Assembly (NCBI GenBank): GCA_028277205.1
Contig: JANQGT010000010.1
Location: forward strand, 1-38,490
Direction: 5' to 3'
DNA length: 38,490 bases
DNA from: Candidatus Altimarinota bacterium
GTDB lineage: Bacteria > Patescibacteriota > Gracilibacteria > BD1-5 > UBA2023
Part shown: positions 760 through 38,490 of the stretch, piece after piece
How the letters are laid out: each line of letters opens with the position of its first letter
How positions within the stretch are numbered: position 1 is the first letter of the stretch
Made by a program: the position numbers and the translations under genes
The notes under the pieces: model-generated
Seen by the model: only the letters and a program-made list of their open reading frames with translations
Told to the model about the DNA's origin: nothing
Database searches by the model: none

Positions 760-1230
760 TTACGCTGCTATTTCTTTCGGAGTAGCAGCGCTTTTGGTGA
801 TCAATGCATCGAGAGCGAGAAGCCGTTCTTCCTCGGGGGCAAGTACCCCTCACTCCGATTGTTTTGCCTGAATAGCGCGTACAGCACCTGAAAATCGTCA
901 AAACGCGTTCATGATCGGGAAAATGGCAGGATTTGTCGGGCTACAAAGCAATGGGAATCTATCACGTATCTGCTCGAATATCGCCCAGATCATGCCAATA
1001 GCCAGAAGGTGTTGAGTGGTAGGAACACTTCCATTGAGACGAGACAATCCATCTAACACCTCACGAAAAAGACTCGACACTGTAGAAACATCGAGATTTC
1101 AGATTTGTTCTCACACCTGCTCGCTCGCAGCAGTAACAATTGCCAAGAGAGCAGTGCCAGTATCATCAGGACGCAACGCTCTTAGATCATTCGACAATTG
1201 CTCTGCTGAAAACTCCGACACTGAAGACAT
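760..1230 (-). CDS. hypothetical protein, about 156 aa
   Basis: Continuous with UGA=Gly: MSSVSEFSAEQLSNDLRALRPDDTGTALLAIVTAASEQV(G)EQI(G)NLDVSTVSSLFREVLDGLSRLNGSVPTTQHLLAIGMIWAIFEQIRDRF...NAF(G)RFSGAVRAIQAKQSE(G)GVLAPEEERLLALDALITKSAATPKEIAA, then TAA. Confidence 0.6.
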
Positions 1231-1304
1231 AGGCGAAAAAAAGAATACACGCTCCAATATAGGAGCATGTTTCGATCTGTCAACTTTTTCTTTTCTATAA
1301 TTTT

Positions 1305-3200: not shown

Positions 3201-3208
3201 ACGGGAGA

Positions 3209-4681: not shown

Positions 4682-4907
4682 AAAAATCTCTCAAAAAAAT
4701 ATAAAGAAGAACTCTAGACCCGGTAAACCCTCCACGACCCGGAAATCTCAACAATATCAGCATGGAAAGGGATTTACTCGTACGAGAGAAAAAACACCTG
4801 CTGCTTTTCGCACTCGGACCAACAAACCGCTACCATATCCAAACATACCGCTCCTCTTCGTCGCGATGACACTCTGCGACTCCCCTATTCAAAAAGAAGA
4901 AATCCCA

Positions 4908-5885: not shown

Positions 5886-5915
5886 ACTTATACTTTTATT
5901 TTTGAAGTGATGGGA

Positions 5916-6314
5916 CTACAGATCAAATACGAAATTGATAAGCGCATTGACGAGAGGAAACGCGATGAGCGTCAGTCCAAAGCCGAGAAGCGAGTAGAGA
6001 ATTCCCTTCTTTGCGGTGCCCGCCTGAGAGTCATCGCCATTTGACACGATGAAGAGAATGGAGGAGTAGATGATCATCGCGATCGCAAGAAGCGATCCGG
6101 CAATGATGATATTGTTTGCGATCTGGATCACGCGTGCCTTTACATCGCTCGCCGAGTAGTCGCCTCCTACCTCCAGCGATCCCTCCGGCTCGCATCACTC
6201 CAGACTCCCGAGGACACTGCTTTCGTCGTAGCTGCAGCTCGCGACGGCGATCCCCGAGGCGACCATCGAACACGCGAGCGCAAATCCGAGCAGCACTATC
6301 GATGTGAGTCGCAT
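5916..6314 (-). CDS. T4SS-pilin-like (TrbC/VirB2-type) small membrane protein 4
   Basis: MRLTSIVLLGFALACSMVASGIAVASCSYDESSVLGSLE(UGA)CEPEGSLEVGGDYSASDVKARVIQIANNIIIAGSLLAIAMIIYSSILFIVSNGDDSQAGTAKKGILYSLLGFGLTLIAFPLVNALINFVFDL, then TAG. Signal peptide plus two TM segments with a GDDSQAGTAKK-type connector. Confidence 0.75.
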
Positions 6315-6325
6315 GGTGAGTATTT

Positions 6326-6691
6326 TTATGAAAAATTGAATCCGAGGACGATACGTACTGCCACATATGCGAGCGGGACGATAGCGAGTCCGACGCCGAC
6401 ATAGATGAGCGACAGCCACGCTTTTTTATGTTCCTCCTCTTTTCCGTCCGCCATCAGGAGACGAAATCCCGTATACAAAAACACTCCGACCGCGATGAGC
6501 GCGAGCAGTCCGATGATATAGTTTTGTGCGACGGCGAAAAAATTGTCCCGGAAATTCACGCTCGTCTCGTCTATTCACGATATCGCTGCCGACGTACCTC
6601 CCTCGATGAGCAAATCCGAACGCAGATCAGCATACACCTGCGCAGAAAACAGCAATCCAAAGCCAAGAATGAGGACAATAAGAAAACGCAT
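6326..6691 (-). CDS. T4SS-pilin-like small membrane protein 3
   Basis: MRFLIVLILGFGLLFSAQVYADLRSDLLIEGGTSAAIS(UGA)IDETSVNFRDNFFAVAQNYIIGLLALIAVGVFLYTGFRLLMADGKEEEHKKAWLSLIYVGVGLAIVPLAYVAVRIVLGFNFS, then TAA. Same two-TM architecture. Confidence 0.72.
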
Positions 6692-7062
6692 TAGAGTCGG
6701 ATGTTATTGACGAGATTCACGAGAAAATACGCCGAAGCGGACGAGAGCACTCCGATGAGCGCATACGCGATGACCATGCGTGCATTCTTGAGTTTTGACT
6801 CATCTCCGTAGGACAGGATCATGAGGACACCTCCGTAGCTCACCGCCAGGATCGCGAGGATTCCCACGTATTTCAGGATTTCGGCGAGGATGTCGCTTGC
6901 GGCGTCGAGCGTGTCCTCCGGTGTCTCTTCCAGCGGCAGTCAAAATTTTTCCGGCTCCGGCAGTCCATCCGCGGCATATACACTCTCGCCGATGCTCGTG
7001 GCAAAAGCACAAAAAAGCACTGCGAATAGGAGAAATGAGAAGAGTCTTATGAAAGCACCCAT
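6691..7062 (-). CDS. T4SS-pilin-like small membrane protein 2
   Basis: MGAFIRLFSFLLFAVLFCAFATSIGESVYAADGLPEPEKF(UGA)LPLEETPEDTLDAASDILAEILKYVGILAILAVSYGGVLMILSYGDESKLKNARMVIAYALIGVLSSASAYFLVNLVNNIRL, then TAA. The stop overlaps the next start (TAATG). Confidence 0.72.
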
Positions 7063-7643
7063 GAGACAAACTGGATGATGGAGTACGAGAGCAGCGCCAT
7101 GATAATCGCAAGCAAATTGTACGTGATGATGGATTTTGCCATACCGGCACGACTGGAGTCCCCGGCGCTCGCCATGAGGATGATGCCTCCTATCACGATG
7201 AAAAGTCCCGCCATCGTGGCAATCGCGACAAGGAGGATATTGACGATATTGGCGATGAGTGCTGTGATATTATCAGCGCCCTCATCATACGGATCCCCCG
7301 ATGAGAGCCGGAAATATCCGGTGTCGATCATAAAGCCCGGACTCGTGATATCTGTGCCTCATACTCCTGCACCTCCGCTCCCTCATCATCCCGTCGTCGG
7401 GTCGGCACCCCCGGGAATATCGCCTATGCCTCCCGTCGTATTGCGATCGCTCGCACCATTCACAGAGTCGGCACTCCCCGGAATAGCATCCGCATCTCCT
7501 ATCGTATCGCGAGACACCTCTCAGGTAGCAGCAAGTGTGTCGGAAACAACTATCGAGCGCGAAAAGTCATCCGAGACCAGTAGCAAGCACCCGAAAACAA
7601 AAACAATGCAAGCAAGAATGAAAGCGCGAAATACCGACTGCAT
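7047..7643 (-). CDS. T4SS-pilin-like small membrane protein 1, with a long Gly-rich linker
   Basis: MQSVFRAFILACIVFVFGCLLLVSDDFSRSIVVSDTLAAT(G)EVSRDTIGDADAIPGSADSVNGASDRNTTGGIGDIPGGADPTTG(GG)GSGGAGV(G)GTDITSPGFMIDTGYF...GDSSRAGMAKSIITYNLLAIIMALLSYSIIQFVSWVLS. Four Gly residues are encoded by UGA. Confidence 0.72.
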
Positions 7644-7768: not shown

Positions 7769-8149
7769 ATGCGCGTCGTCCTCAGCGTCCTCGCAAACTG
7801 ACTGCTTCTCTTTGCGCTCGCCTATTTTTTGCCGTATGATGCGGACGCCGGTGCAGGCATCATCTCCAGCGGGACATCCCAGCTGTATCTGGTAGGCGGG
7901 ACGATCCTCGGCGTGCTGAATGCCGTAGTCAGACCTATCCTGAAGATCATATGATTTCCATTTATCATTCTCTCGTTCGGACTGTTTATCCTCGTGATCA
8001 ATGCTATCATTCTCCGCTTGCTTGAGATTATTTTAAAAATTCTTGATATTTCCTGAGTACGATTTGAAATCGAGGGACTCGCACACTATGCGATGGCGGT
8101 TGCAATCTTTACAGTCTTTAATATACTCTACAATCTCCTCTTTCGATAG
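7769..8149 (+). CDS. phage holin family 4-like membrane protein
   Basis: MRVVLSVLAN(G)LLLFALAYFLPYDADAGAGIISSGTSQLYLVGGTILGVLNAVVRPILKII(G)FPFIILSFGLFILVINAIILRLLEIILKILDIS(G)VRFEIEGLAHYAMAVAIFTVFNILYNLLFR, then TAG. The LNAVVRPILK...P..I.T.GLF.LVINA pattern resembles the Phage_holin_4 family. Confidence 0.75.
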
Positions 8150-8218
8150 ACAGAGGATCCTGGGAAAGTTTTCAAAAATCTTTTGTACATTTTATCGGCT
8201 TTTCACACTCTCACGATC

Positions 8219-8440
8219 ATGACAGATATCCTGACCGTATCGCTTCTCATCACGAGTGCTCTGCTCGTCATCATCATCATCCTGCAGCCAAAAGGAGAAT
8301 GACTCTCTCTGACGGGGACGAGCGTAGGCAGCTCCGCCCGCTTTGAAAAGCGGGGCGCCGAGCTCATGCTGCATCGCATCACTATCGCACTTTCCGTCGT
8401 CTATGTCGCGCTCGCGCTCGCACTGTATTTGCTTGGATAG
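8219..8440 (+). CDS. secG: preprotein translocase subunit SecG
   Basis: MTDILTVSLLITSALLVIIIILQPKGE(UGA)LSLTGTSVGSSARFEKRGAELMLHRITIALSVVYVALALALYLLG, then TAG. The SecG LQPKGEGLS signature has its Gly encoded by UGA. Confidence 0.88.
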
Positions 8441-8461
8441 CGCGCTTTATCGAATTCGCTC

Positions 8462-10636
8462 ATGTCGGTCCTCGCAAAAATTTCGAAGTATCTGCTCTTT
8501 CTCGCGGTATTTTTTACGTTTCTCGTTTCCGCGCATCTGGTCGTAGCATACCTCTACCATGACAGTACGATACTGCCGGAGGAGGGCGGCACCATCAGCA
8601 TCGGGCTCGTCGGAGACGTCCCGTCACTCAATCCGCTGGAGTACGGAATGCATCCGAAAAATGACATCGTACTGCGATATCTGTATCGCTCCATGCTGCG
8701 CTATGATCCGCTGCGGCGCGAGGTGGTGGGCGACATCGGAAACTGCGATTTGGGGCAAAATTTCAGTATCGTGCAGTGCTATCCAAATCAGGGGCTCTGG
8801 AGCGACGGTACGCCCATCACGACGGAGGATATCCTGCAGACCTATCGCACCCTCAGCGAAAGCGATATCAATCCTGCGCTCAAAGCCATCCTCTCGGAAA
8901 TCACCATCGAAGACACCGGCGAGTACATCGCGTTTCGCACAGATAATCCCGACGTCGAGATCATCACGCTCTTTCTGGCGCCCATCGTATCGGCAGAGGA
9001 GGCTCGGCAGATCCGGCGCGGCATCCTGGATCTGGAGGCGATACCGGCATCCTGACCGTATACGTATGCATGACGCGAGGGAGTAGACAGCTATAATTCT
9101 GAGAAAATCACCCTCGTCAAAAATCCAAACTTTTGAGGCGACGAGCGGATATATATCGGTCGGACGGTGTTTCGGTTTTTTCCGGACGAGCAGACGCTTT
9201 TGAAAAATGAGAGCATCCTCAATGTCATCCCAGCGACCGAGACCACACCGCCTCCGGAGTCCCCGAGATTCGAGCCGGTAAAAACACTCTTGCCGCAGTA
9301 TATTTCCCTGTTTCTCAATAGCGAAGAAGTCCCCGCAGACATCAGAAATATCGTACTGTTTCACCTCGAAAATACTCAGTACGCGTCACTCTCGAGCGAT
9401 CGCTGAAAAGTCATGCCGGACATTTTCTTTGGAAATCCCGAGCCGCACGAGCTTCTTTCAAAGAATATCGCAGAACCGTTCAATATCCTCGGATTTTACA
9501 AACGCGATACTTTGATACATCTTTACAGCGAAGAGATCGAAGCGCTGGAGCAATGAGAGCTCCCCGACAGCAGTACTCCTGCAGAGCCCGCACCCGCGAT
9601 ACCCGCAAACACGCACTTTTCAGCGCCGACCTCCGAGAGCATCTATTTCTTTTCCGGAAACAGCGAGGGCGAGCTCATCCTCTCGTGATCCGTCCCCGCC
9701 GACACGACCGCCGTCCTCATCAATGGCTATCGCCTCTCCCGCTATGTCCCCGGAAGCGGAACATTTCTCTATAGATCACGCCTCGATCTCGGCAATCTGC
9801 GCGAGGGAGAAAATATCTATAGACTCACGCTCGAGCGTGCTGGACAGCGCGAAGAGGTGGAGACACTGACGGTCTACTACTCTCCCGATGCGGCACGCCT
9901 CGCCGAGATACGAGGCAATGTCATGTCCGAATACACGACCCCAGAGCCGGAAACACCCGATCCGGACACCGTCGAAAAAGCCCGTACAGGTCTGGAAAAA
10001 TCTCTCGCGCAAGTCGAAAAGCTCGACAACACCTACTACTACAATCGCGACTTTGTGCGCTATACGCTCGATATGCTGTATACCAATCAATCGCATGTCG
10101 TCCCCGAGCTCGTATGAGAAATCTCCGAGGCGCTAAAGCTCATCGGCATACACGTCAATCATCGGGAGATCAGTCTGGAGGAAATGCGAACCATCATCGA
10201 CTCTGACCAAAAAACATACGATATGCTCCTGACGGGCGTGCACCTCGGGACGCTCGGGTACAATATATTTCCATTTTTTCACTCGGGACAGGCGGAGTCC
10301 GGATTCAATTTTTCAAAGATCAAAAGCATCCCCCTGGACGTCGAGCTCGAGACGCTGAAATCCCGATTTCAAAAAGGCGAAGACCTCGCATCAGTACAGG
10401 AGACGATCCGTACACTCGTGCATAAAGAACACGCCGTCCTCCCCTACTATGCGTCGTATCGTACCTGGTACGTCGATCGAAATCTGGAAAACATCCCCAG
10501 TCCCGAGCTCCTCCCCTCGAGTGCGCACCTCGTAGAGCTGACGCGCGACTCCTCGATCATCCGTCGATACGGGATCGAGTGGGACATGAAAACGGGTACG
10601 GATTTTTTCTCCTGGATATCTGAGTCCATACGATAA
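8462..10636 (+). CDS. peptide/oligopeptide ABC-type solute-binding protein (SBP_bac_5-like) with inserted Ig-like domain
   Basis: ORFs 8462..9055, 9167..9406, 9857..10117 and 10184..10636 are in the same frame across seven UGAs. SBP motifs: LVGDVPSLNPLEYG, LWSDGTPITTEDILQTYRTL, SGPYTYAGREGVDSYNSEKITLVKNPNFGGDERIY. Ends in TAA. Confidence 0.82.
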
Positions 10637-11583
10637 TGACGACACAATCGGTACTCGACGCGTGGCGCCTGCTAAATGAAAAAGAGACACTCAAACGATT
10701 TAATTTTTTTCCATCTCTCGTCACGACGGTCTATCTCGGCGGACTCATCCTGTATCAGGTGGCGTTTACCTACGCCGAGACCGAGAGAGGAGACAGTGCG
10801 GCGGCGTTTTTTCGGCGCCTTTTAGAGCTCGCGTATGAGGAGTATTTTTTCTATATCGTGGTGATAGCGATAGTCGGAGTGCTGACCTACGTCGTCACGA
10901 TACCCCTCTCTCAGGCGTGACTGCTCGCCCTCATAGACAAGCACATCCGCCTGGATCGGGGGCTCATGCAGGCATCGGGAGACCGCTCAGAGCATTTCTA
11001 TAGCTACGCTCTCTCGAAGGGCATCATAAAATTTCTACCGGTCTTCGAGCTCAATAACATCATGGTTCCTTTCAATCTCCTGAGCATTCTCTCATTTTAC
11101 CTCTTTCTCATACGCATCCTGGATGAGTATATCGTCACCGTCTCCGTCATCGTCGGCGTGTATTTTCTCATCAGCCTCTTTGTCAATATTCTCTTTGCAT
11201 ACTCCCGATACTTCATCGTATTTGAAAATATGTCGGCATTCCAGGCGATCGGGGCGTCGATCGAGATGACTTTTGACAATCTCTCTGAGACATTCAGATT
11301 GTATTTCACCATCCTGCTTGTGTACTTTCGTACGCTGCTTGCCGCGGCATTTTTTCTCGTATTTCCGTTTTTGCTGTTTGCAGCGCTCTCGTATATCACG
11401 ATCGACTATATCCGCTCGATCGGGATCGTAGCGCTCGGAGTCGTATTTCTCATATTTCTCGCACTCGTCTCGCACCTCAATTCCGTACTCGAGATTTTCA
11501 CCCAGACCGTCTGGTACAATACCTACATGGAAAACAAGCAGGAAAAGACCCGACAAGAAGGAAAGAATCAGGAGACAGCATAG
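10636..11583 (+). CDS. polytopic membrane protein of unknown function
   Basis: ORFs 10636..10920 and 10966..11583 are in frame across one UGA (SQA-G-LLALIDKHIRLDRG). Multiple hydrophobic segments. The start overlaps the preceding stop (TAATG). Ends in TAG. Confidence 0.7.
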
Positions 11584-11715
11584 CGACGCATCTGAAAAAT
11601 TTTCATGATCGCTTGATCACCCGAAATCTGAAAAATGCTCGAAAGCGTACTCGCGATACCGTATCGTATGAATGTATCGCGATTATGGTCTGACACAAAT
11701 ACGTGCGAGAAAGTG

Positions 11716-11743
11716 TTGGCATTTTCAATCACGGGACTATAAT
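11716..11743 (+). promoter_or_regulatory. putative promoter of alaS (TTGGCA-N16-TATAAT)
   Basis: -35 TTGGCA at 11716-11721 and -10 TATAAT at 11738-11743, 29 nt before the ATG at 11773. Confidence 0.55.
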
Positions 11744-11772
11744 GCGATTGTACTCTCGTAAGCCCCTCTCTT

Positions 11773-13902
11773 ATGTCCATCCACTCCTGAGATATTCGCT
11801 CGAAATACCTCGAGTTTTTCCGACAAAAACAGCACGCCGTCATCGAGTCGGCACCCCTCGTCCCGGAAAATGATCCCTCCGTCCTCTTCAATACGGCGGG
11901 CATGCAGCCCCTCGTCCCCTATCTGCTGGGGAAAAAACACCCCATGGGCACGCGTCTGGCTGACGTGCAAAAGTGCATTCGCACCGTCGACATTGACGAT
12001 GTAGGGGACAATACGCACTGTACATTTTTCGAGATGCTCGGAAACTGGTCGCTCGGCGACTATTTCAAAGAAGCGTCGATCCAGTGGTCGCACGAGCTTT
12101 TGACCAGCTCGGAGTGGCTCGGCATCGATCCCTCATGGCTCGCCGTCACGGTATTCGAGGGTGATGAAAACGCACCCCGCGACGAAGAATCGGCGACGAT
12201 CTGGAGGCAGCTCGGCATCCCCGAGAGTCGGATCAGCTACCTGCCGGCGGAGGACAACTGGTGGGCGGCGGGACCGACGGGACCATGCGGACCGGACACC
12301 GAGATTTTTTACTGGGTGGGCGAGGGCGAGCCGGATCCAGAGTCAAATGTCGCGAAAGACCCGAAAAAATGGATGGAAATCTGGAATAATGTCTTTATGG
12401 AGTACAATCGCAAAAAAACAGAAAAAGTCCTTCTTCTTGATGGGATGCATTGCCTCTTTGATGAAAATCTGGGAGTGGACGAAGCGGTGCTCAGTCGCGC
12501 TCGCGCGCTCTCATCGCGCATCATCGTGGTGACGATGGTCTCACGCGATGCACTCTCCCACCTCGCAGATATAGGTCTCGAGGTCATAAGCTACGATTTT
12601 GATCCGCCGAAAACCAATCCCGATTTTTTCAAAAAACTCCTCTCAGAAAAGTCGCTGTCCCCCGACGATGTCGTGTATATCGATCACGCGGAGGAAAATC
12701 TGAAAAGCGCTCGAGACGCTGGCATCACAAACTGCGAGCTTTTTGAGGCGGTAAGATCATTTGACAAGCTGGAGAAATATCTGTACACACTCGAAAAACT
12801 GCCCGCGCAAAACGTCGATACCGGCATGGGACTGGAGCGCATCACGGCGACACTCGGGCATGTAAAGTCCGTGTATGAGACCGACATATTCGCCGATGTC
12901 CTGGAAAAAATCCGCACCATCGTATGAGCAAACAACTATCATGAGCGATCGGCGCGCATCATCGCCGATCACCTGCGCGCCGCCACGCACCTGGTCGCCG
13001 ACGGCGTCGTCCCGAAAAACGTCGATCAGGGATATATCCTGCGACGGCTGATACGACGGGCGATTCGCGAATTTTTCAAAATGGGATATGAAGAGCGGAT
13101 AATCGCCGAGATCGCACGGATGTACATAGCGAAATTTCGGGATGTCTATCAGTCCGTACGCGATAATGAGACGATGATCATAGAGGAGCTGCAAAAAGAA
13201 GAAGAGCGATTTGCAAAGACGCTGAAAAACGGACTGCGCGAGCTGGAGAAAACCGCCGAGCCCATCACGGGAAAAGTCGCCTTTGATCTCTTTCAGACGT
13301 ACGGATTGCCGCCGGAGATGATAGAGGAGGAGCTCTCAAATCTCGGTCGTCCGCCATTTGATCGTGCAGAGTTTGATCGAGAATTCGAGCACCATCAGGC
13401 GATTTCGCGTGCGGGTAGTGAGCAAAAATTCAAGGGAGGACTCGCCGATACCGCCGTCGAGACAGTGCGACTGCACTCCGCCACCCACTTGCTTTTGAGC
13501 GGACTGCGGCACGTGCTCGGCGATCATGTCCATCAGGCGGGTGCGAATATCACGACCGAGCGCTTGCGGTTTGACTTTACGCATCCGGAAAAGCTGACAG
13601 ACGAGCAAAAGAGCGAGATAGAGCAATTTGTCAATGACGCCATTCAGACCGGATTTAGTGTGACGATAGAGGAAATGCCCAAACAAACAGCACGCGAGAC
13701 CGGTGTCGAGTGAAGTTTTTGGGAGCGGTATCCGGAGATCGTGTCTGTCTATACGATGCAGAGCGTCGATGGTACGATCTACTCGCGCGAGCTCTGCGGC
13801 GGTCCACACGTCGAGATCTCCGATCGGATGGGTACATTTCGCATCACGAAAGAAGAGTCATCGAGTGCAGGCGTCCGGCGGGTGAAAGCGGTACTGGAAT
13901 AG
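11773..13902 (+). CDS. alaS: alanyl-tRNA synthetase with internal HAD-like insertion and no C-Ala domain
   Basis: MSIHS(G)DIRSKYLEFFRQKQHAVIESAPLVPENDPSVLFNTAGMQPLVPYLLGKKHPMGTRLADVQKCIRTVDIDDVGDNTHCTFFEMLGNWSLGDYFK...VDTGMGLERITATL...FADVLEKIRTIV(G)ANNYHERSARIIADHLRAATHLVADGVVPKNVDQGYILRRLIRRAIREF...LHSATHLLLSGLRHVLGDHVHQAGANITTERLRFDFTH...TGVE(G)SFWERYP...RELCGGPHVEISDRMGTFRITKEESSSAGVRRVKAVLE, then TAG. Three UGA=Gly. Confidence 0.95.
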
Positions 13903-13922
13903 TATTTGATAACCGGTTTTTC

Positions 13923-14363
13923 ATGAAAATCACTCTCTGCGGCAGTCTCGATTTTTCCCATGAGATGGGCGATATCGCACGGCAGCTCGAAATACTCGGG
14001 CATATCACTCGCATTCCCTATAATGCAGAACGAGTTCTCTCTCAAGAAATAACGCTGGAAAATATCATACATGCAAAAGAAGATGGCACAAGAATGGTCA
14101 AGCTCTCCATCGAGCATGATGCTATCCGCCGCCACTATCGAAAAATCGCCGAAGCCGACGCCATCCTCGTGGTAAACCTCGAAAAGAAATGAATCCCCGG
14201 CTATATCGGCGGCAACACGTTTTTAGAGGTAGGATTCGCGCATGTACTGGATAGAAAAATTTTTCTGCTGCATGAAATCCCCGACATGCCCTACACGACG
14301 GAAATTCGCGCGATGCAGCCGACTGTGATCGCGGGCGATCTGGAGCGCATAGTCAGTGAGTAG
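13923..14363 (+). CDS. nucleoside 2-deoxyribosyltransferase-like protein
   Basis: MKITLCGSLDFSHEMGDIARQLEILGHITRIPYN...IEHDAIRRHYRKIAEADAILVVNLEKK(UGA)IPGYIGGNTFLEVGFAHVLDRKIFLLHEIPDMPYTTEIRAMQPTVIAGDLERIVSE, then TAG. The CGS start and AILVVN..K.GIPGYIGGNTFLEVGFA pattern fit NDT-fold proteins. Confidence 0.7.
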
Positions 14364-14400
14364 TCAGCGCTGATCTTCACGAAAATTCGACATTTCCACC

Positions 14401-14429
14401 TTGAGAAATCAGGCACCATATGCTACTAT
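14401..14429 (+). promoter_or_regulatory. putative promoter (TTGAGA-N17-TACTAT)
   Basis: -35 at 14401-14406 and -10 at 14424-14429, upstream of the M23 gene start at 14460. Confidence 0.45.
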
Positions 14430-14459
14430 AGAGAGCGCTCTAGTGCATAATCAGTTTTT

Positions 14460-16514
14460 GTGAAGCTATCGCTTTTTTCAGGTATTCGAGTGTTTGCATG
14501 CGTCCTGCTTTTGTTTGGGGTAAATGACGCCTTCGCAGACGACGGATTTCGCTATCCGTTTGATCAGGTAGCGCATCCGGACTGCCGATTTTCCGAGTGG
14601 TCGACCCTCGACGACGAGTGTAAAATCGACATGCCCCGAATCGAAAACGCCGACTACGAACGCTATAAAAATGACTTTCTCTATCAGCGACTGTATACCG
14701 TCCTCTGGGGCGCCACCTACAAATACGGATGGGACGTAGGACAGGGATCGCATCTGGGCATCGATGTCGCTACGAGCCGCGGGACGCCCGTCGTCTCCAT
14801 CGCGGACGGGACGGTCGTACAGGCAGGGTGGCTGGGCGGATGGGGAAATACCGTCACGGTGCGCCACCGACTCGAGGACGGATCATATTTGTTTTCAAAC
14901 TACGCACACCTGTCGAAGATCTCGGTCGTCTCCGGACAGTCGGTCGCATCCGGAGAAAAGCTCGGAGAAGTGGGCAGCACGGGAAACTCGACGGGAAATC
15001 ATCTGCATTTCCAGATCGATACGACGGATCAGTCGCACCCCTACTACTATATCACCTGCGGCGCCGGCAGAAATCCGTTTGATATCGTCAATGGCGGACT
15101 CTGCCGCACCTGGCTCGAAAACAATACCATCGATCCCATCGCTTTTCTGGAGAGCGGAGAGCTGCTCGCGCAGGCGCCGACCGTCACAAAGGAAACAGTG
15201 GAAAAAATCAAAGAGCAGCCCCGCGTCGTCATTGATCAGACGGAGGTCGAGAGCCGCGAGGAGATCCTGAAAAAAGAGCTCGACATTTTCCTCGAAGATC
15301 ATACGATCCGCGTGAGCCTGACCACTCTCGAGAGAAATATCCCCCTCGGCGGCACGGTGGAGGGAGCGATCATCGTCAAACGAAAGCGTAAGCCCTTTAC
15401 GTGAATCCTGCCCGCCGAAGGCATCACGCTGCACGCCGATCCGGGAGTACTCGATTTTTCACCGGAGCGGATCCTGGATATAGAGGACGGCATGCGTACA
15501 TTTACCATCAGAGGGCTGCAGTCCGGACGACATCCCATCAGTCTGCGCATCGGCGACCAGATCCTCTCTGTCACGACCGTGGACGTCTACGTCCCCGAGC
15601 AGGAGCGGGATCCGACGGACGGGGCATTTTTCTACGATCCTAGTATAGAGCTCGCGGATGAGCGGACGGGAGGGTATATCATGAAAACGTCTCGGGGAGC
15701 GTACCAGCTCGATATTCCATTTGATGGTGTATACGTGCTCACGGCGACATCCGGACGCGCGAAATTTTGCAATGTCTCCCACAAACAGCGAAAGGAATGC
15801 GCGACGGGCGAGCTGGTGGATGATCTCATCTTTACCTATGCGGACACGTATCGAGGCGTCCTCGTGTTTAATCTCGTGCCCCTGGACACCCGGGACGTGA
15901 CGCTGGAGGTGTCCCGCTATGATGATCGCAGCATTCTCTCGACCGGGCGGGATATCAGTGTCTCGCTGCCGCGCGATCTGGATACCGCTGGCATCTATCG
16001 CGACGATATCCTCTGAGCACTCAAAAAATGACTCGTGCGCGTACGCTCCGGACGCATCCTGCACGATCGTGATCTGCGCGGACGCGAAGCAAAAGAAATC
16101 ATCCAAAACATGCTCGGCTACGCCTACCTGCGAGCTGGCAATGATCGAGCGCTCAAGCAAGCTTTGGATGCGCTCATGAAGCGATTTGTGCAGAGTGCCG
16201 ATGCGACAGTGAGCGATTTTGACGTGCTGACCCGGGGACAGTTCGCACGGCTGGTCATGGAGGCATTTGCCGATCCGCGCGATATCGTCCGCGATACCGG
16301 CAGACTCCGGGACGAGGACGGCGAATACCGGGCTGAAATTTCGACACTGCGAGTCCGCGATGCATTCGCATGGAAAGACCGGTTTTCCGAAAATTATTTT
16401 CAGCCGGCTAAAACCCTCACACTGTGAGAAAGTCTCTATTTCGCCGATACGTACCTCGAAAATTTCATAGAGCGAGCAGAGAAACGAGGACAATCATTGA
16501 CACTCTGAGAATAA
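14460..16514 (+). CDS. secreted M23-family (LytM/DD-endopeptidase) protein with long C-terminal region
   Basis: GTG start and signal peptide. M23 core: GSHLGIDVATSRGTPVVSIADGTVVQAGWLGGWGNTVTVRH...FSNYAHLSKISVVSGQSVASGEKLGEVGSTGNSTGNHLHFQID. UGAs at KPFT-G-ILPAEGI, DIL-G-ALKKW-G-, TLTL-G-ESLYF and TL-G-E, then TAA. Confidence 0.88.
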
Positions 16515-25764: not shown

Positions 25765-25849
25765 GCTGGGGTGGTGGAATGGTAGACACGCAGGTTTCAG
25801 AAGCCTGTGCCCACAGGGTGTGAGAGTTCGAATCTCTTCCCCAGCACCA
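25765..25849 (+). tRNA. tRNA-Leu, anticodon CAG
   Basis: GCTGGGG...CCCCAGC acceptor stem, A discriminator, encoded CCA. Anticodon loop TTCAGAA in a CAGG/CCTG stem. Long variable arm (TGCCC-ACA-GGGTG) of a class II tRNA. T-arm GAGAGTTCGAATCTC. Confidence 0.93.
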
Positions 25850-28131: not shown

Positions 28132-28279
28132 ACGTGGAAAGATCGAGAAGCCAAAAAATGAGCAGAGAAATTTTAGTCGATGGAGCCGTAAAAGTCAATT
28201 CATTTTTCAAAAATATTTCTCTAAATCCTCAAAAAATATCGTGTCATATCCGAAACACCAGAAACACATCGATCATATC

Positions 28280-28885
28280 ATGTCTTCGAAAGTCACAAAA
28301 GAAGAGAAGATCTGACGCCTCCGAGAGTTTTTTCGAGCGCATGAGATTCGTCTTTTTTTTGATTTTGACGATACGATCGTACATATCGAGAGCGGTCTGT
28401 ATGGAAAGTACACGCTTTTGAAATGGTTTTGGCGCAAAGAGGCGCATGAGCGCTCGCAAACTGTCAACGACATCATGGAGGCGACACGCATCAATCCGGC
28501 ACTCATCGAGACAATATCGAAAAGCAATCTCCGAGGAAATGCCATCATCATCAGCCGAAACTATCATGCGGTCATACGCGCTTTTCTCATGCGGCATGCG
28601 GATATCCTGCAGGACCACGGCATCACGCTGGTATGATGAGTCGGGCAGTGGGGAGGACGATTGCGATTTCGCTCACGCGAAAAGCTGGATTTTTTAGCAT
28701 CAGGATCGATGCTCGTCGCCGATATGTTTGAGGATAAAAGGCTCCATGCTCACCCTCGGGTCATCCTCGTACAAAGATTGAGCTCGATGGCGAAATGACT
28801 CATATATTTTAGAAAAATACTCAAAATCGCCGGGTTTTTCATCGCAAAAATTTTGAAAACAATAAAAAACCAAGAAAAGTCGTAG
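28280..28885 (+). CDS. HAD-superfamily hydrolase-like protein
   Basis: MSSKVTKEEKI(UGA)RLREFFRAHEIRLFFDFDDTIVHIESGLYGKYTLLKWFWRKEAHERSQTVNDIMEATRINPALIETISKSNLRGNAIIISRNYHAVIRAFLMRHADILQDHGITLV(GG)VGQWGGRLRFRSREKLDFLASGSMLVADMFEDKRL..., then TAG. HAD motif I FDFDDT. Confidence 0.65.
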
Positions 28886-29225
28886 ACCGTATCAAAAATC
28901 GCTTTTGCAAAAAACGAGATTTCACATACTGCTGTATCGAAAAAATCATTATTATGTCGGATCACTCCCCAAAAGACAATCAATCCGCACGCAATCCACA
29001 CGAGCCTCCAAGAAATCCCGATATTCATCTGCATACCGACACCCACTCTCCGAAGGGCATGCGTAGAGGAAATCATCACATTCTTGCGACAGCGATTTTG
29101 ATGGATATAATTTTCTCGATCACCCACAACAACAGTCCCCTTTCTTACATATGAAAATCAATCAATGCATTGTTTTCAAATAATGATACTATCATACCAC
29201 CTCTTTTTTCATCAAAAAATCACAC

Positions 29226-31436
29226 ATGTCTAGAGCCTTAGATATTATTTTCGATCCATTTTTTATTGCACTGTCAGGCATCGGAATTGGTGCCTTCGCA
29301 CTCCGTCAGGCATGGTCTCGCAAATATATACAAGAAACTCCCAAAATGCTTATCTGGATATTTCTCGCGAGTCTATTGATCGCGAGTACGATACATATCA
29401 TCCCGGAAATATACAGAATTTTTCTTTGAGAACACAATTTCTCCTATCTTATTTCACGACACTTACAGCTAACGTTTTTTACAGTATTTATGGGGATATT
29501 ACTCATATCTCCTCTTCGTGTGCCGCTTCTGGAAACATACACGACCGACCCGAGAGATCACCAATACGGGGCTCGCCCGAGACAGGCTGGTATTTTTTCT
29601 TGGATCAATCTGCTATGGGAAAAACATATCTGACCATTTCCCATTATCACGATCATCGTTGTCATGGTTTTTCTCGGATTTGCCCTCACACACCTTTGAC
29701 AGTTTATGAGTGTCGACGAACCAAAATGGCTATACGAAAGAGTGCCGCAACTGTATACAGCACTCTCCAACGGAGCATGGGAAGAAACATACATCAACGA
29801 TAAGCCCGGTATTCTTCCTTCCTTACTTGCGGGGACGATTTCTTCTTTTTTTGATTTTACATGGTTTGAGAGGCGACCCGAGATTTTCGAGTGGTATCTC
29901 TTTATTTGGCGCCTGCCTATCGTACTGTTTTCCGCGGGTATGCTCCTGCTCGTGTACCTGTATTCGAACCGACTTTTTGGTAAAATGTTCGCAGTGCTCG
30001 CTACCGCATTGATTGCATTTCATCCTATTTTGATGGGGATATCCCAGATCGTCAATCCGGACGCAACTCTCTGGAGCACCTCGCTTCTCGCATTTCTGAC
30101 ATTTTTTCTCTACATCAAAGAAAACAAATTCCGTTATGTTCTGTTAACCGGAATATTTTTATGACTCGCCTTGATCTCAAAATTTTTTGCTTCATTTTTC
30201 TACCTGCTGTTTTTCGTCGTCATACTCTGAGAATACTTACTCGCACTAACAAAAAAAGAGCAATTTTTTACGAGAATCCTAGATCTGCTAAAAATATACG
30301 GCATTTCCATGCTGGTGTACACATTCCTCTTTCCAGCGACATGGATCAACCCTGAGCAAATATTTCTGTGAACGATAGCATGAAATCTTGTATCCACGGG
30401 AGTGATCTATGGAAGTGTCATATTATTCATCGTTGCTATAGACATATTTTTGCTCGACGAAAAAATAATCGGAACAGTGCGTCGAAACGCGTGATTGTTT
30501 TGCGCTACGAGTATCCTATTATTGACGACACTTCTTTTGGGAATTGCGATACTTCTTCAGTACAACGTACTTTTTTGAGAGCCATTTTTTACTTTCAACG
30601 ACTACGTGTTTTCATGAGCGATTGTGCGAGGGCTTACGCCAGATTTGATAGCACTTATAAATAATCTCTTCGTATCATTCTATTCAACTTTTTATGTGTT
30701 GCCGCCGACACTCTTACTTGGATTTTACGGCAGCATATTTGTGATGCTCCGATACTATAAAAGATTTTCACGGTTTGAAATGTTGATGTTACTGACGATT
30801 TTTGTTTTTTATTTCATCTTCATATTTGGCGGAGTCAAATCGTGATACACGGCATCGGCAAGATACCAGATCATACTATTCCCCGTGATAGCATGTCTCG
30901 TGGCACTCGTGATCACCCGTATACTCCCACATAAAGGGGTATTGACAGCTATCATAGTCGCAAGCATTATACCCATTTGAAGCATATTTCCATTTTATTT
31001 TGTCTATACAAACAGTCTCAACTCGCAAGACTACGTAACGACTGAGCTATGGTGATTCGGGTGATATGAGGTTGCACAATTTCTCAATGCACTTCAAGAA
31101 ACGTCCGGTCAAGATATCGCCATATGGGTCGATAGAGAAGGGGTCAACAATTTTTACTCCTGAACAACTTTTTGGCGAGGCAGGCACAATCCCTTTGAGC
31201 ATTCACAAATCGAATACCTTGTTCTCACTCCAGGAGGAGAGCGAATTTTTCGAAAAGCACTCAAAGATTGGAAACAATGATCGCGCTATCACTACGCATA
31301 TATCGCCGCAAATACATCAATCTTGGAATACTATGAATCTGCAACACCCATCTACATTAAGCACATAGGGCACAAAAACAACTGGATAAAAGTCGTGCCC
31401 GTATCGAGTGAACGACGGTATTCACAGGCACCGTAG
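29226..31436 (+). CDS. GT39/ArnT-like membrane glycosyltransferase (dolichyl-phosphate-mannose-protein mannosyltransferase-like)
   Basis: One 736-codon frame when 16 in-frame UGAs are read as Gly. MSVDEPKWLYERVPQLYTALSNGAWEETYINDKPGILPSLLAGTISS...LYSNRLFGKMFAVLATALIAFHPILMGISQIVNPDATLWSTSLLAFLTFFLYIKENKFRYVLLTGIFL(G)LALISKFFA...VKS(G)YTASARYQIILFPVIACL...ELW(G)FG(G)YEVAQFLN..., then TAG. Confidence 0.85.
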
Positions 31437-31588
31437 ATACCAATGGGCAAATTCACAGTACTTTTTTCAGTGCACTTCTTTGAATCGATTTTCCTTAGAA
31501 CTGGAATCTATTGACTCATTCCCGACTTAACGGGATATCCTGTCAAAAGGATGGTATGAAGATGATTTCATGGCAATCTCCCTGCGTC

Positions 31589-32851
31589 CTATCAAATTCG
31601 TTTTTTCATCAGATGCCGCAGGACCACAGCATTCCCCAACGCCATGAGCGAATATGCCGCTACCGTACTCAAAGCAGCAGCAATCGCTCAATACAGCGGA
31701 ATGAAATACCAATTGAGTCCGATATTGAGTAACAGCGGTCAGATAAAAACAAGCGCTCGCAGGTGCCCACCCATCTCATAGTCGATAAATCCATTGAGCG
31801 TGATGACGATCGCGGTCACAAATACAAACGCACTGAAAATCTGCAAGACGGAAGCGGCGGGGATGTACTCCACTCCGTAAAAAAACGACAAGAGCATGGG
31901 CGCAAACCAAAAAATCGCGATACAAAGTGGCACAAAGAGCAGTATAATCGCAAGGAAATTTCCCCTCACGAGAGCGTGTTTGTCGTTTATATTTTCTCGC
32001 TGTATGATGAGCGGAGCGAGACCCATGCTCATGACGAGTGCGATCTGCGGCAGTCGATTCACGAGATTCTTCGCGGCGGTATACCATCCGAGCTCGATCT
32101 CACTGCTGAGCCATCATATCATGATGGTGTCGATTTCCGTCAGGACCATAAATCCGAGAGAGATAAAAAAGAAAGGAACGGCATTTCGCAGGATCGTCAC
32201 GATATCAGACCGACGAAGCACCATCCATCCAGAAAGAAAGTGACGATGACGAAAAAGCACCCACACGGCGGCAACCGCGACCGAGAGAGCAAACACCATG
32301 CTCGTGGAGGCGAGTGTCATCTCGGTATACGCGACAAAGACACCCGCACATGCGAGCAGTAGTCAATACTCCAGCAGATTGAGCAGACAGGCGGAGCGCA
32401 GATCGTGAAATCCCCAAGCGATTTCACGAAAGTAATTTGTGATGATGCGTCCGGTCACATACAGTACGAAAGCCCCCGAAAACCCCAATCCGTATCACGA
32501 GACATCGGACGGGACGAATGCCAAAAAGGCGATCGTCGCTCCGAGGAAAATCGCAAGCGTAACAAGTCTCACGAAAAACGCATGCCGGAGAAACGATGAA
32601 GCGTCTGCGGAATGGGCGACATGCGCGAGCAATACGCGCGACGAAGTCCCAATACCGAGATCGCCGACCGTCGCGAAGATCGTAAGTATCGCAAACCAAA
32701 AGCCCCATACCCCGTACGCCTCGACACCGAGCTCGCGGGCGAGGATGACATTCGTGATCAGGATACCGATAAAAGCAACTCATTTTGACGCAGCCGCCCA
32801 GAGCGTTTCCCGTACGCCTTTGGATCGCAGGAGTCTTTTTAGGATTGCCAT
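31589..32851 (-). CDS. polysaccharide flippase (Wzx/MATE-like), 420 aa
   Basis: MAILKRLLRSKGVRETLWAAASK(G)VAFIGILITNVILARELGVEAYGVWGFWFAILTIFATVGDLGIGTSSRVLLAHV...TEIDTIMI(G)WLSSEIELGWYTAAKNLVNRLPQIALVMSMGLAPLI...FFYGVEYIPAASVLQIFSAFVFV..., then TAG. Confidence 0.87.
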
Positions 32852-33732
32852 ATCATCTCAAAATCAATACCGATCAGCTTCGACAGAGCGCGCACGTCCG
32901 ACTGGAAAAACTCTCGATACAGCCGAGAGTAGAGATCCGGATCGAGCGTATGCGGAGTTTTCGGACGAGTTTTGAGTGTCATGCAAACAAGCTCGTACAT
33001 AAACCTGAAAATACCGGTTTTTCGCGCCCACTGGAGCGTCCGGTACATTTTACGCCTCGATAAAAATCGTCGGATTTTCTGCAGCGATTGATGCAAAAGT
33101 GGCGCTATCGGATCTCATCTTTCATTGCTTTTCCGATAGAGTGTACCGAGGAGAGACGACTCGGCTCACAAGAATTTTTCCAGTGCATGCAGCGATTTTT
33201 CGGGAGTGCGGATAAATTTTTCAAAGACAATCACATAAATGCGCTCCCTCGGAAATCGAGCAAAAAAGGAAGCAAGCTTTTCGCCGTACAGACTGTAGTC
33301 GACGAGATACGAGCGAGTCTGTAGCGCCTGAGAAAAAGACCCTCCAGAATCAAGTCCGAGCTGTCGATCATAGAGATAGTGCGAAAATGCTCGTCGCACC
33401 GGATGACGAAGGACAGCTATGAGTTTTGTATCCGGAAACAACTCGTGCATACGCTCCGGAGCGATCCTGTCCCGAAAGTAGGCGGGAGTAAATTCGCCCG
33501 TTTTCTGTCCCGATTTCGCCTCTCGAAAAAAGTGGGCATACCACTCGATACTCTGATGAAATGGATAATTTTCGATACTCTGATCCTCTACAAAGTGAGC
33601 ACTGAAATAGGTAAGCTCTTTATCGGCGGAGATGAAAATCTGCGGATGCTCTCGCAAACAGTCGGCGATCCAGGTGCTCCCGGATTTCGGCGCGGCGATA
33701 CCCACGAAGTCAAGATGAAAGGATGATGGCAT
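32839..33732 (-). CDS. sulfotransferase family protein
   Basis: MPSSFHLDFVGIAAPKSGSTWIADCLREHPQIFISADKELTYF...GEFTPAYFRD...FPDTKLIAVLRHPVRRAFSHYLYDRQLG...RERIYVIVFEKFIRTPEKSLHALEKFL(G)AESSLLGTLYRKSNER(G)DPIAPL..., then TAA. PAPS 5'-loop (PKSGSTW) and RHPVRRAFSHY 3'-PB motif. Overlaps the flippase start. Confidence 0.92.
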
Positions 33733-33734
33733 AC

Positions 33735-34391
33735 TTACTTGTTTACTGTGCAGACGATTACGAGTGTTTTCGCAAAGACATCATAGGACAGGCGACGAAA
33801 AAGCCAGTTTCAGTATCGTCCGAGCGGGAGCTTTGACATAGCGCCGAGTACGTACACGTCCGAGCGCACCACCGAAAATCCGTACGACTCCAGCAGATCG
33901 CACATGCGCTTCTGGCTAAATGACTGCAGGTGCCCAACTTTATGGAAAATCGCACCGCATTCCGGACATCGAAAAGAGTTTTTTTCGAGATCTTCTTCGA
34001 AAGGAACGGTGATGATGACGCGCGCTCCCTGTCGGGCGACGCGACGGATCTCCCGCAGCCCCGCATCAATCTGCTCATGCGTGAGATGCTCTAAAACCTC
34101 GGTCGCGAAAATCGTCTGAAAATGGCTGTCTCACTTTGGAATTTCGGTGATGGATCCTGTTTCTATGAGATCGTGCTTTGGATTTATATCGATGCCCTCC
34201 GCGTCGAATCCGCGATTTCGAAGCTCTATCACGAGCGAGCCCTCCCCCGCACCGACATCGAGGATCGGCGAGCGACAGTATTTTTTTACGATCCGCACGA
34301 GTGTCTTGGCATTTTTCTGAGCCTGGTAGCCGATGTGCGCATACACGCGCTCGATATCGGTCTGATACCGTTCATTGTGAATGTCTCGCAT
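33735..34391 (-). CDS. class I SAM-dependent methyltransferase
   Basis: MRDIHNERYQTDIERVYAHIGYQAQKNAKTLVRIVKKYCRSPILDVGAGEGSLVIELRNRGFDAEGIDINPKHDLIETGSITEIPK(G)DSHFQTIFATEVLEHLTHEQIDAGLREIRRVARQGARVIITVPFEEDLEKNSFRCPECGAIFHKVGHLQSFSQK...GRY(G)NWLFRRLSYDVFAKTLVIVCTVNK, then TAA. Confidence 0.9.
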
Positions 34392-34399
34392 AAAAGAAT

Positions 34400-36334
34400 T
34401 TAGAAATACGAAAGTGAAACCCCATAGCGTTTCGCCCAGAGATTCAGCATGAGCAGGAGCCAGAGTTTTTTGCCATGGCGCGCACCGCGATCGTGCTCCC
34501 GAAACAACCGCTCAAGCTCATCCCGACGACAGACCTGCACCGCAAGCGATCCGGACTCAAGGATGCTGTCCCGGGAAAACTCCCGAAGCTCTCATCAGAG
34601 CCATGCATCGATGGGAATGCCAAATCCGGTTTTTTTTCGATACAAAAGATCGTGCGGGAGATAGGGCGCAAGCAGGGTTTTCCAGATGTATTTTCCGCCG
34701 GAGTCAGCATGATATTTGTACTCGTACGGCAGAGTCGCCGCAAACTCCACGACCTCACGATCAAGCAGCGGACTGCGTCCTTCAAGCCCATGACTCATCG
34801 TGGCGATGTCGACCTTTACCAGCAGATCATCCGGCAGATATGTGCGAATATCGAGGGAAAAGATCTCATCGATACCGCGGGCGTCGTGTCCCTCCGTCGC
34901 CCGGACGAAAGCATTTTTTTGCGATGTGAGGCGAGCGCAAAACTCATCGGATAAAAGCGCGTGTTTCGAAAACGGCTCGAAATAGTGGGTATAGTAGTAG
35001 TGTCGTTCGACTGCCGAGAGTCCGAGCGTACGCAAAAATATATGCAGCTTGTAGAGTGTGAGGGCGGGTCGCCACCGATACGCCGCGAGAACCGCACGCG
35101 CAAAAGTCTGGGGAAACGGGACAAATCGGGCGATGCGATCGGCGATGGCGTGTCGGCGATATTTGTCGTATCCGGCGAAATTTTCATCGCCCCCGTCTCC
35201 ATTGAGCGCGACTTTTACGTATTGCGACGCTTTTTGCGCGAGGATGAAGCTCGGCAGCGCCGAGGGATCGGCATACGGTTCTTCGTACTGCTCGACGATG
35301 CAGTCGATGAGCGGAGGCATATCGCCGCTTGCTACGAAAAACTCGCGATGACGCGTCCCGTAGCGCCCTGCGACCCGACGCGCAAAAAGTCCCTCGTCAA
35401 ACTCCGCCTCGTGAAAACGAATCGTAAATGTCTGCAGTTCGCTCACATATTCCGAAGCAAGCGCGACAATACCGGCACTATCCACTCCTCCGCTCAAAAA
35501 CGCTCCCACCTCGACGTCGGCGACGAGACGAGACTTGATGGCGGATCGGATTCGATCCGCCAGCTCGCGCTGCGCATGAGCGAAATCCAGCGAGGTTTTT
35601 TGTGTATACGAGAGCGACCAGTAGCGCTCTATAGCGAGCTCACCAGTACGAATATCATACGTGAGACAGTGAGCCGCCGAAAGTTTTTCGATACCGAGAA
35701 ATCCCGTACGCGGCGCCGGGACATACTGCAGCGTCAGAAAATCGTAGATCGCCTCGGGATCGGCGGCTGGGTCGAAACCGGGATGATCGAGCAGTGCTTT
35801 GAGCTCGCTCGCAAAGAGAAACAGCCCATCACGATAAAAAAATTTGAACGGCTTTTTTCACAGTCTATCCCGTGCTGCGAATATGATATTTTCCCGTCGA
35901 TCGTAGATCGCAAAGGCAAACATGCCATTCAGACGATCAAGGCAAGAGCGTCCGTAGGCATGATACGCTTTCAGGAGTACCTCCGTGTCGCTGCCTGAGA
36001 AAAACCGGTACCCGTACTCCCTCGAGAGCTCTTCGCGCAGAGAGACAAAATTGTAAATCTCGCCATTGAATACGAGGATGATATCCGCATCCGAGAGCTC
36101 TGAATCCGTGACGATCGCTCGATCCTCGGAGGCGACATACCCCATCGGCTGGTGTCATCGAGGACTCAGCTCCAGGATGGACAGCCTCGTCTGTCCCATG
36201 AGGACGCACCCGTCGGAGGAGAGAAAATGTCCCCGATCATCCGGACCGCGATGAGACAGTGCGCACGCCATCGCCTCCGCCCGGTCGTGCGAGAGCGATC
36301 ATGAGACGTCGTATCCTCCGAATATGCCGCACAT
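34400..36334 (-). CDS. asnB: asparagine synthetase (glutamine-hydrolysing)
   Basis: MCGIFGGYDVS(G)SLSHDRAEAMACALSHRGPDDRG...LELSPR(G)HQPM...LVFNGEIYNFVSLREEL...SGSDTEVLLKAYHAYG...LNGMFAFAIYDRRENIIFAARDRL(G)KKPFKFFY...AFLSGGVDSAGIVALASEY...NGDGGDENFAGYDKYRRH...EGRSPLLDREVVEFAATLP..., then TAA. Confidence 0.95.
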
Positions 36335-36346
36335 AGTACAAAAAAA

Positions 36347-37462
36347 TTATCGAAGCAGGGTGAGAAATTTCCGGGCTGCACGATCGGGATCGTGTTCGTC
36401 TTGCGCGTATTTTCGGGCATTTTTTCCCATGCGTTTCAGATAGCTCTCATCATCGAGCGCCGCACGCACACGCGTACAAAATCCCTGTACGTCCGACGAC
36501 CCTGCGACGATGCCCGCCTCATGCGTGCGAATGATATCGTCCGGATCGAGTGTCAGAGAGAGGATAGGCAGTCAGTACGCCATCGCTTCCAGCATCGTAT
36601 TTGCAAAGCCCTCGGACTCGGATGTCAGCACGAAAGCGCGAGACCGCCGATACAGAGTAAATATCCGCTCGGGATCGACTCAGTCCAAAAACTCGACATT
36701 GCTCATCCGCCGGGCACGCTCGCAGATCGCAGCGAAACACCGCTCGCCCTCAGGGTTATTTGCTCTGGGGAGGATCATGATACCCGTTTTCTCCGGCAGA
36801 CGCTCCAGCAGATCCAAAAAAATCTCCGGACGTTTCCACGGCTCGGAGCGCCCGACCCAGATGAGATCGATATCCGGACTCCCCGACTGCGTGGGGATCG
36901 TGACGAGATTTTTGAGGATGAGGTCCGGTTTTCTGGAAAAATGACACTCGAAATCCCGGGACTGAGACCGGGTCTGCGCCACGATACAGTGGGCGAGACG
37001 AAAGACAATGCGCATACTCATTGCCGTCCAAAAGCCGAAAAATCGCCGCAGTCGAACACGATCGGTCTCGGCGTCGTGGGCGAGCATATAGACGACCCGG
37101 ATACCCCGCAGCCGACAGAGTATCACCGGTAAAAACACTCCGGCATTCGCCGAGCGAAATACGGCATTTCGTGTCCGGATGCGCATGAGCACACCCAGCA
37201 GAGAAAAGAGCGCGACGATTTTGATCGAGCCGGCACGAAACGCCCGATGCAATGAAATACCGGGAATATCCGGCATCAAGACACCCCAGTCCGGTACCGT
37301 ATAGACGACACGCTTTCCGAGAGTGGCGAGCTGTCTGCCGAGCAAAAACACCTGTCGCTCCGAGCCGCCCGTCGTCTGCCGGATCTCCGGTATGAAAAAC
37401 GCAAGCACCTTTGGTGCGACGAAGCATACGTCATGAGGGATGTCCTCTCCGGAGGCGGACAT
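36347..37462 (-). CDS. family 4 glycosyltransferase
   Basis: IRQTTGGSERQVFLLGRQLATLGKRVVYTVPDWG...IDLIWVGRSEPWKRPEIFLDLLERLPEKTGIMILPRANNPEGERCFAAICERARRMSNVEFLD(UGA)VDPERIFTLYRRSRAFVLTSESEGFANTMLEAMAY(UGA)LPILSLTLDPDDII..., then TAA. Confidence 0.9.
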
Positions 37463-37634: not shown

Positions 37635-38490
37635 ATGGCTGTACAGCACATGACCGCCTCCGAGTGGAGCGCGGAAAATCCCATACTCATAAACGGACAA
37701 ATCGGCATCGAGACCGACACGGGCAAAGCGAAAATCGGAAATGGCGCCGACGGATGGAATGCGCTTCCTTATTCTCTTTCCGGGCTGACTGCTCTCGCGG
37801 ACGCTATTGCTTTGTCCCAGTTTCATGCGATACCGTCGAGCACTGCGGACAATGTCATGACCTGGGCGGACGCAAACGGCGACACACCGAAAGACAGCGG
37901 TGTCCCGATCGGAAGTATCCTGACCGACACGATGAAGACGGGAAACGATGCGAATGTCGTCTCCGGTACGGCGGGCACGGATGGAAATCTCGCCCGATGG
38001 GATACAAACGGCGATCTGGTCGATGCACATCTCTCGGCGATACATATCGGCAATACCATCACGGGAGACCGTCAGGTGGACATAGAGAGCGGTACCGCCG
38101 ACGATATGGCGATCGGAGGGACGACGCCGAGCACGGGCGCATTCACGATACTGTCGGCGGACAAAGCCTGAATCAATACCGGCTCGCCGTTCGCACCTCT
38201 CGCGGTCAATGTCCCGGACAGAACCGACGGAGAGACCACCGATATCGCCTCGGCGGCATTGCTTGCATGACCTTCGTCCGCATCCGTTTCACATGACTTT
38301 TCAAACAGTACCGCTATCATGCGAGTCATCGGACGCGATGTATCGAGCAATCTGCAATTCGGAGTGGCAGATGGTTCTTACGGTTTCAACCCGTGGGTAC
38401 AGGCATCGCTTGATAATTCTACTACCGGAGACGATTTTGGAAATAAACATATCCTCCTCCAGCCGATCGGAGGCAGTGTCGCCGTATGAG
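37635..38490 (+). CDS. phage-tail-fibre-like / surface adhesin protein (3' truncated by window edge)
   Basis: MAVQHMTASEWSAENPILINGQIGIETDTGKAKIGNGADGWNALPYSLSGLTALADAIALSQ...GTADDMAIGGTTPSTGAFTILSADKA(G)INTGSPFAPLAVNVPDRTDGETTDIASAALLA(G)PSSASVSHDFSNSTAIMRVIGRDVSSNLQFGVADGSYGFNPWVQASLDNS.... The N-terminus matches the 'NP.L..GEIGIETDTG..KIGDG...WN.LPY' module of phage tail-fibre/receptor-binding proteins. Confidence 0.8.

What the first reader, a model, noticed from the sequence alone, without database searches (positions are those of the whole stretch)
37635..38490. Phage tail-fibre-type receptor-binding module at a chromosomal locus, cut by the window edge
The N-terminal MAVQHMTASEWSAENPILINGQIGIETDTGKAKIGNGADGWNALPYS is the module seen at the start of many phage tail-fibre/receptor-binding proteins, and resembles targets of diversity-generating retroelements. 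It adjoins a glycan cassette, not phage structural genes. It could be a host-recognition adhesin or the start of a prophage or tailocin. UGA-Gly codons within it show adaptation to code 25.
Basis: partly seen in the sequence, partly recalled or inferred. Interest (0 to 1): 0.62.

Follow-up and report, generated by a model that had tools for sequence, protein, structure and literature searches.

The report
Orphan phage tail-fibre gene in bacterial chromosome
A single intact phage-type tail-fibre gene sits among sugar-coat genes in a bacterium that reads UGA as glycine, and part of its receptor end is nearly identical to the fibre gene of a virus found with the same genome; it is not part of a visible prophage at this spot nor of a retroelement diversification system.

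Summary
The ORF at 37635 begins with an Mtd_N-type (PF18454) tail-fibre N-terminus, the module that also caps streptococcal phage hyaluronidases in solved structures. The window ends because contig C51 ends. Its last 99 bases are the first 99 of contig C25, where the ORF runs on in frame to a 345-aa end. Beyond lie host genes, not a prophage. No reverse transcriptase was found in the bin and no export signal is seen, so the DGR-target, prophage-start and tailocin readings fail. A second genus of the family (G028) has an orphan gene with the same N-terminus in a continuous 82-kb contig, also inside a glycan cassette and also convergent with a RibF-like gene; its C-terminus is unrelated. Best reading: a phage-derived orphan tail-fibre gene in a variable glycan locus, whose distal module was recently exchanged with a code-25 phage. 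Its function in the host is inferred. Moderately interesting; a new member of a known kind.

The parts
37635..38490 (+). Orphan tail-fibre-type gene, first 285 of 345 codons (TGA=Gly); continues in contig C25 (L004) to its stop at C25:279-281
37635..37775 (+). N-terminal Mtd_N / phage hyaluronidase capping-type module, residues 1-47
   Evidence: Pfam PF18454, PHROGs, PDB 6x3m, 2c3f, 3eka
38168..38293 (+). Stretch shared with the last gene of phage contig C31 (97.6% over 126 bp, 3 mismatches; the only significant match between C31 and C51+C25)
38392..38490 (+). 99-bp assembly overlap, identical to the first 99 bp of contig C25
38169..38171 (+). TGA codon read as Gly179, inside the shared stretch
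38268..38270 (+). TGA codon read as Gly212, inside the shared stretch
38487..38489 (+). TGA codon read as Gly285
36347..37462 (-). Divergent flanking gene, glycosyltransferase group 1 (371 aa): left border is a host glycan cassette, not phage

Best explanation
It is an orphan, phage-derived tail-fibre (receptor-binding protein) gene, 345 aa. It has an Mtd_N/hyaluronidase-type N-terminal virion-attachment module, a fibre-type middle, and an exchangeable distal module. It is resident in a variable surface-glycan locus of a UGA=Gly (code 25) genome. It is intact but has no neighbouring phage genes, reverse transcriptase or export signal. Part of its distal half was recently exchanged with, or copied from or to, the fibre gene of a code-25 siphophage in the same bin (C31). 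Shown: domain identity, completeness of the ORF across the contig join, host-type genes on both sides, near-identity to C31, and a second orphan of the same N-terminal type in a comparable position in another genus. Inferred: that it works, when it works, as a tail fibre or as a donor of receptor-binding modules for phages of this host by homologous recombination, rather than as an exported host adhesin.
For: N-terminus: Mtd_N, PHROG tail fibre and phage hyaluronidase capping module. C-terminal residues 304-345 are 62% identical to a Sinorhizobium phage protein. ORF complete over the 99-bp contig overlap. Host-type genes on both sides. C31 is a siphophage cassette: portal 7e-41, MuF plus S78 protease, TMP_3, tail tube, Dit, terminase; its last gene shares 126 bp at 97.6% after an unrelated N-terminus, and nothing else in C51+C25 is shared with C31. 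G028, another genus of the family, has an unambiguous orphan with the same N-terminus inside an 82-kb contig, beside CTP_transf, UbiA, GT9 and methyltransferase genes, with no PF04860 portal in that genome. In both genomes the gene reads toward a convergent RibF-like gene 7-9 kb away.
Against: The C51-C25 join rests on a 99-bp overlap, which itself implies a branch in the assembly graph; reads were not available. No expression or virion data. The N-terminus is no closer to the G028 copy (44-49%) than to some phages (53% over 53 aa, Arthrobacter phage Ingrid), so shared descent of the two orphans is not shown by sequence. C31 ends inside the shared stretch, so the full phage fibre is unknown. 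Whether C31 is an integrated prophage, a free phage or a mis-binned contig is unknown. The structure prediction failed (pLDDT 34).
Confidence: 0.62

Rival explanations
1. Neutral relic: the last intact gene of a decayed prophage, with no present function.
For: No other phage gene on C51 or C25 by inspection; the gene is rare (2 of 288 genomes of the class); no promoter-like site found on the + strand upstream of the start.
Against: The ORF is intact over 345 codons and shares almost identical sequence with a phage, implying recent exchange rather than old decay. A comparable intact gene stands in a comparable place in another genus.
Confidence: 0.16
2. A phage sits between C51 and C25: a prophage inserted through the shared fibre module, so that window and C25 hold the two end genes of a prophage and the 99-bp overlap is a repeat at its two borders.
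For: The 99-bp overlap marks a graph branch. C31 runs in the same direction and ends inside the shared module. Some short contigs read as N (masked), so missing phage pieces may not be visible.
Against: The direct join continues the frame in phase to a plausible end. The orphan in G028 is in one continuous contig with a similar neighbourhood. C31 has no contig-end overlap with C51 or C25.
Confidence: 0.1
3. Host-adopted adhesin or contact protein used by an episymbiotic cell to recognise a partner.
For: Position in surface-glycan cassettes in two genera; receptor-binding architecture.
Against: No signal peptide, transmembrane or anchor segment in either protein. The modules that match anything match phage proteins.
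Confidence: 0.06
4. Chimeric contig: the last ~850 bp of C51 come from a phage and were misjoined to host DNA.
For: Near-identical stretch in a phage contig and an assembly branch at the end.
Against: The N-terminal half of the gene has no copy elsewhere in the bin. G028 shows a gene of the same type in a comparable setting.
Confidence: 0.05
5. Target of a diversity-generating retroelement.
For: The N-terminal domain is that of the BPP-1 Mtd family.
Against: No reverse transcriptase match at E<=1 in a 93% complete genome, while controls ring. No C-type-lectin domain found. Only three differences from the C31 copy, not an adenine-directed pattern.
Confidence: 0.01

Closest known systems
Streptococcal phage hyaluronidases (PDB 2c3f, 6x3m, 3eka), tail-spike proteins
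   Same: N-terminal 44 residues align (E 9e-6 to 3e-4)
   Different: No match to the hyaluronidase catalytic part; here it lies outside any phage gene cluster and uses TGA=Gly
[quoted passage not shown]
   Same: N-terminal Mtd_N domain
   Different: No C-type-lectin variable region, template repeat or reverse transcriptase found
Fibre-position gene of the code-25 siphophage on contig C31 of the same bin
   Same: 126 bp at 97.6% in the distal module
   Different: Different N-terminus; it lies after Dit and tail genes in a morphogenesis cassette
Code-25 prophages of Gracilibacteria and Absconditabacteria (Liu et al. 2023, PMC10746230)
   Same: Phage genes that use TGA=Gly in such hosts
   Different: Those are prophage regions recognised by portal, tail, terminase or integrase genes; this is a single gene without them

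Membership tests
Mtd_N-containing phage receptor-binding proteins (PF18454) | Mtd_N domain at the N-terminus | tested here: met
   24.8 bits against cut-off 26.3 in the protein scan, 28.6 bits over cut-off in the genome scan; PDB phage hyaluronidases align over the same residues
Mtd_N-containing phage receptor-binding proteins (PF18454) | encoded in a phage tail gene cluster | tested here: not met
   Host-type genes on both sides in C51 and C25
Mtd_N-containing phage receptor-binding proteins (PF18454) | incorporated into a virion and binds a receptor | not testable with these tools
   needs virion proteomics and binding assays
DGR target protein | adjacent or genome-borne DGR reverse transcriptase | tested here: not met
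   no RVT_1 match at E<=1 in the own genome; controls ring
DGR target protein | C-terminal variable region with C-type-lectin fold | tested here: inconclusive
   no such domain in Pfam or PHROGs scans, but the model of the window part was too poor to judge the fold
DGR target protein | template repeat differing at adenines | tested here: not met
   no repeat of 60 bp or more in C25; the only paralogous stretch is inside another ORF with 3 differences
Complete prophage or tailocin at this locus | head/tail morphogenesis or integrase genes beside it | tested here: not met
   none on either side by inspection; integrase-type genes lie on C18 and C47; an unseen insertion at the join is not excluded
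Exported host adhesin | signal peptide or membrane anchor | tested here: not met
   no hydrophobic stretch of that kind in either orphan by hydropathy

The most novel reading that the evidence does not exclude
A lineage of code-25 bacteria keeps, at a variable surface-glycan locus, a chromosomal phage fibre gene whose distal module is exchanged with infecting phages: a host-borne reservoir that links receptor synthesis and receptor binding in one hypervariable locus, used either by resident phages to follow surface change or by the host as a decoy.
Probability: 0.12. Interest if true: 0.62.

Novelty: new member of a known kind. Interest (0 to 1): 0.32.

Why it matters
Receptor-binding proteins of phages that infect code-25 Patescibacteria are hardly described. 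The pair found here (orphan gene and phage C31) ties a phage module to a host glycan locus, and so gives a testable host-phage pairing independent of CRISPR spacers. It also shows module sharing between a chromosomal fibre gene and a phage in a reduced genome.

Tried and rejected
DGR reading: no RT, template repeat or lectin domain found. Prophage continuing rightward: C25 carries host-type genes. Relatives of the window protein in IMG/VR and GTDB contigs by pattern search: none. Exact module fragments in viral and genome contigs: none. Relatives of the C31 capsid in IMG/VR: none; of its portal: one weak local match. Empty-site comparison: the flanking membrane-protein gene on C25 has no homologue in 26 other family genomes, so no empty site could be read. 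AlphaFold single-sequence models of both orphans failed (mean pLDDT 34-35), so no fold search was run. Contig-end overlaps did not place C31 next to any other contig. Two family searches failed on wrong coordinates and were repeated.

Full report
What is there. The window is the complete contig C51 of a 1.06-Mb, 52-contig, 93.4% complete genome. The last 99 bases of the window are the first 99 of contig C25. Other joins between contigs of this assembly show the same 99-bp overlap (C32-C41 and C1-C41), so it looks like the k-mer overlap of the assembler. Reading on into C25, the frame stays open and stops at C25:279-281, giving a protein of 345 aa. The start at 37635 is supported by the alignment of its N-terminus with that of the G028 homologue.

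What the protein is. Residues 6-38 match Pfam Mtd_N. Residues 4-98 match PHROG tail-fibre families to 3e-11. Residues 4-47 match the N-terminal part of streptococcal phage hyaluronidases of known structure, and tblastn finds the N-terminus in tail proteins of Rhodococcus, Gordonia, Arthrobacter, Streptococcus and cyanobacterial phages. The last 42-47 residues match a Sinorhizobium phage protein at 57-62%. The part between (about 135-300) has no family match; by eye it has the repeat style of fibre shafts, but this was not tested. There is no signal peptide or transmembrane segment by hydropathy. A single-sequence AlphaFold model was useless.

The neighbourhood. To the left, divergently, lies a group-1 glycosyltransferase and, by inspection, further glycan genes. 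To the right, on C25, come a polytopic membrane protein (no Pfam match), and genes that by inspection are glycosyltransferases, a dehydrogenase, RibF, RecO, prepilin peptidase and MurA. No phage morphogenesis gene and no reverse transcriptase was seen there; the genome as a whole has no RVT_1 match.

The phage link. Contig C31 (15.7 kb) is a siphophage morphogenesis cassette: terminase, portal (7e-41), MuF and S78 protease, major head protein, tail tube, tape measure (TMP_3) and Dit. It uses TGA for 7.6% of glycines, the host genes 8.6%, the orphan 9.8%. Its last gene begins with an unrelated N-terminus and after some 47 codons runs into sequence that matches window 38168-38293 at 123 of 126 bases; the contig then ends. 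This is the only significant DNA match between C31 and the joined C51+C25. A shared distal stretch behind different N-termini is the usual signature of modular exchange between phage fibre genes (established knowledge). All four TGA codons of the orphan lie in its distal half (0 of 21 against 4 of 20 glycine codons, Fisher p=0.048); this is weak support for a separate origin of that half. Code-25 prophages of Gracilibacteria and Absconditabacteria are already reported (PMC10746230).

A second orphan. Of 77 genomes of the order and 288 of the class, one other has a clear Mtd_N gene: G028, another genus of the same family. Its 338-aa gene (C18:41099-42115, minus) lies in an 82-kb contig between a cytidylyltransferase-like gene and UbiA, GT9 and methyltransferase genes. 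That genome has no PF04860 portal. In both genomes the orphan reads toward a convergent RibF-like gene 7-9 kb away, with a different set of glycan genes in between, and a PP2C-like/RecO/prepilin-peptidase block nearby (names by inspection). Among 27 family genomes this RibF form was found only in these two. This supports the C51-C25 join independently, since the Mtd_N end is on C51 and the RibF gene on C25. The two proteins agree over the first ~60 residues (44-49%) and not convincingly beyond. Because some phages are as similar in that part, common descent of the two orphans is suggested by position but not by sequence. A more distant genome of the phylum (G573) has two tandem Mtd_N genes beside a third fibre-like gene near a contig end.

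How it most likely works. The gene is best read as a tail-fibre gene living outside a phage: attachment module in front, receptor-binding module behind. Without export it can meet a receptor only as part of a virion or after lysis, so the likeliest use is through phages: complementation of, or recombination with, the fibre gene of a resident or infecting code-25 phage. The near-identity with C31 shows such an exchange has happened in one direction or the other. That step is shown at the sequence level; the direction, the benefit, and any expression are inference. A neutral relic is the main rival.

Limits. Reads and depth were not available, a dozen short contigs read as N, C31 ends inside the shared stretch, and the 99-bp overlap implies a branch whose other arm is not seen. 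An insertion of a phage between C51 and C25 is therefore unlikely but not excluded.

Noticed in passing
L005 (contig C31), 1-15664: Siphophage morphogenesis cassette in code 25 within the bin, with no close relative of its capsid and only one weak local match of its portal in IMG/VR by pattern search; the only PF04860 portal among the 27 family genomes.
   Followed up: partly
L143 (G000:C47), 7840-15224: Possible filamentous-phage (inovirus-like) element in a code-25 genome: integrase, a protein with a weak M13 protein I match (phrog_1675, 5e-4), small membrane proteins and a 1189-aa protein with 22 TGA codons.
   Followed up: partly
L141 (G573:C11), 8397-10899: Two tandem Mtd_N proteins and a further fibre-like protein near a contig end in a distant genome of the phylum, with no phage morphogenesis gene recognised by eye in the 8 kb on the visible side.
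   Followed up: partly
window 28200-37462 and L004 (C25) 1-7100: The glycan locus around the orphan shares no detectable genes with that of G028 while nearby housekeeping genes are conserved: a hypervariable surface-glycan locus.
   Followed up: partly
window 25765-25849; L019 11732-11815: tRNA-Leu genes lie within 12 kb (own) and 2 kb (G028) of the orphan genes, possible old integration sites.
   Followed up: no
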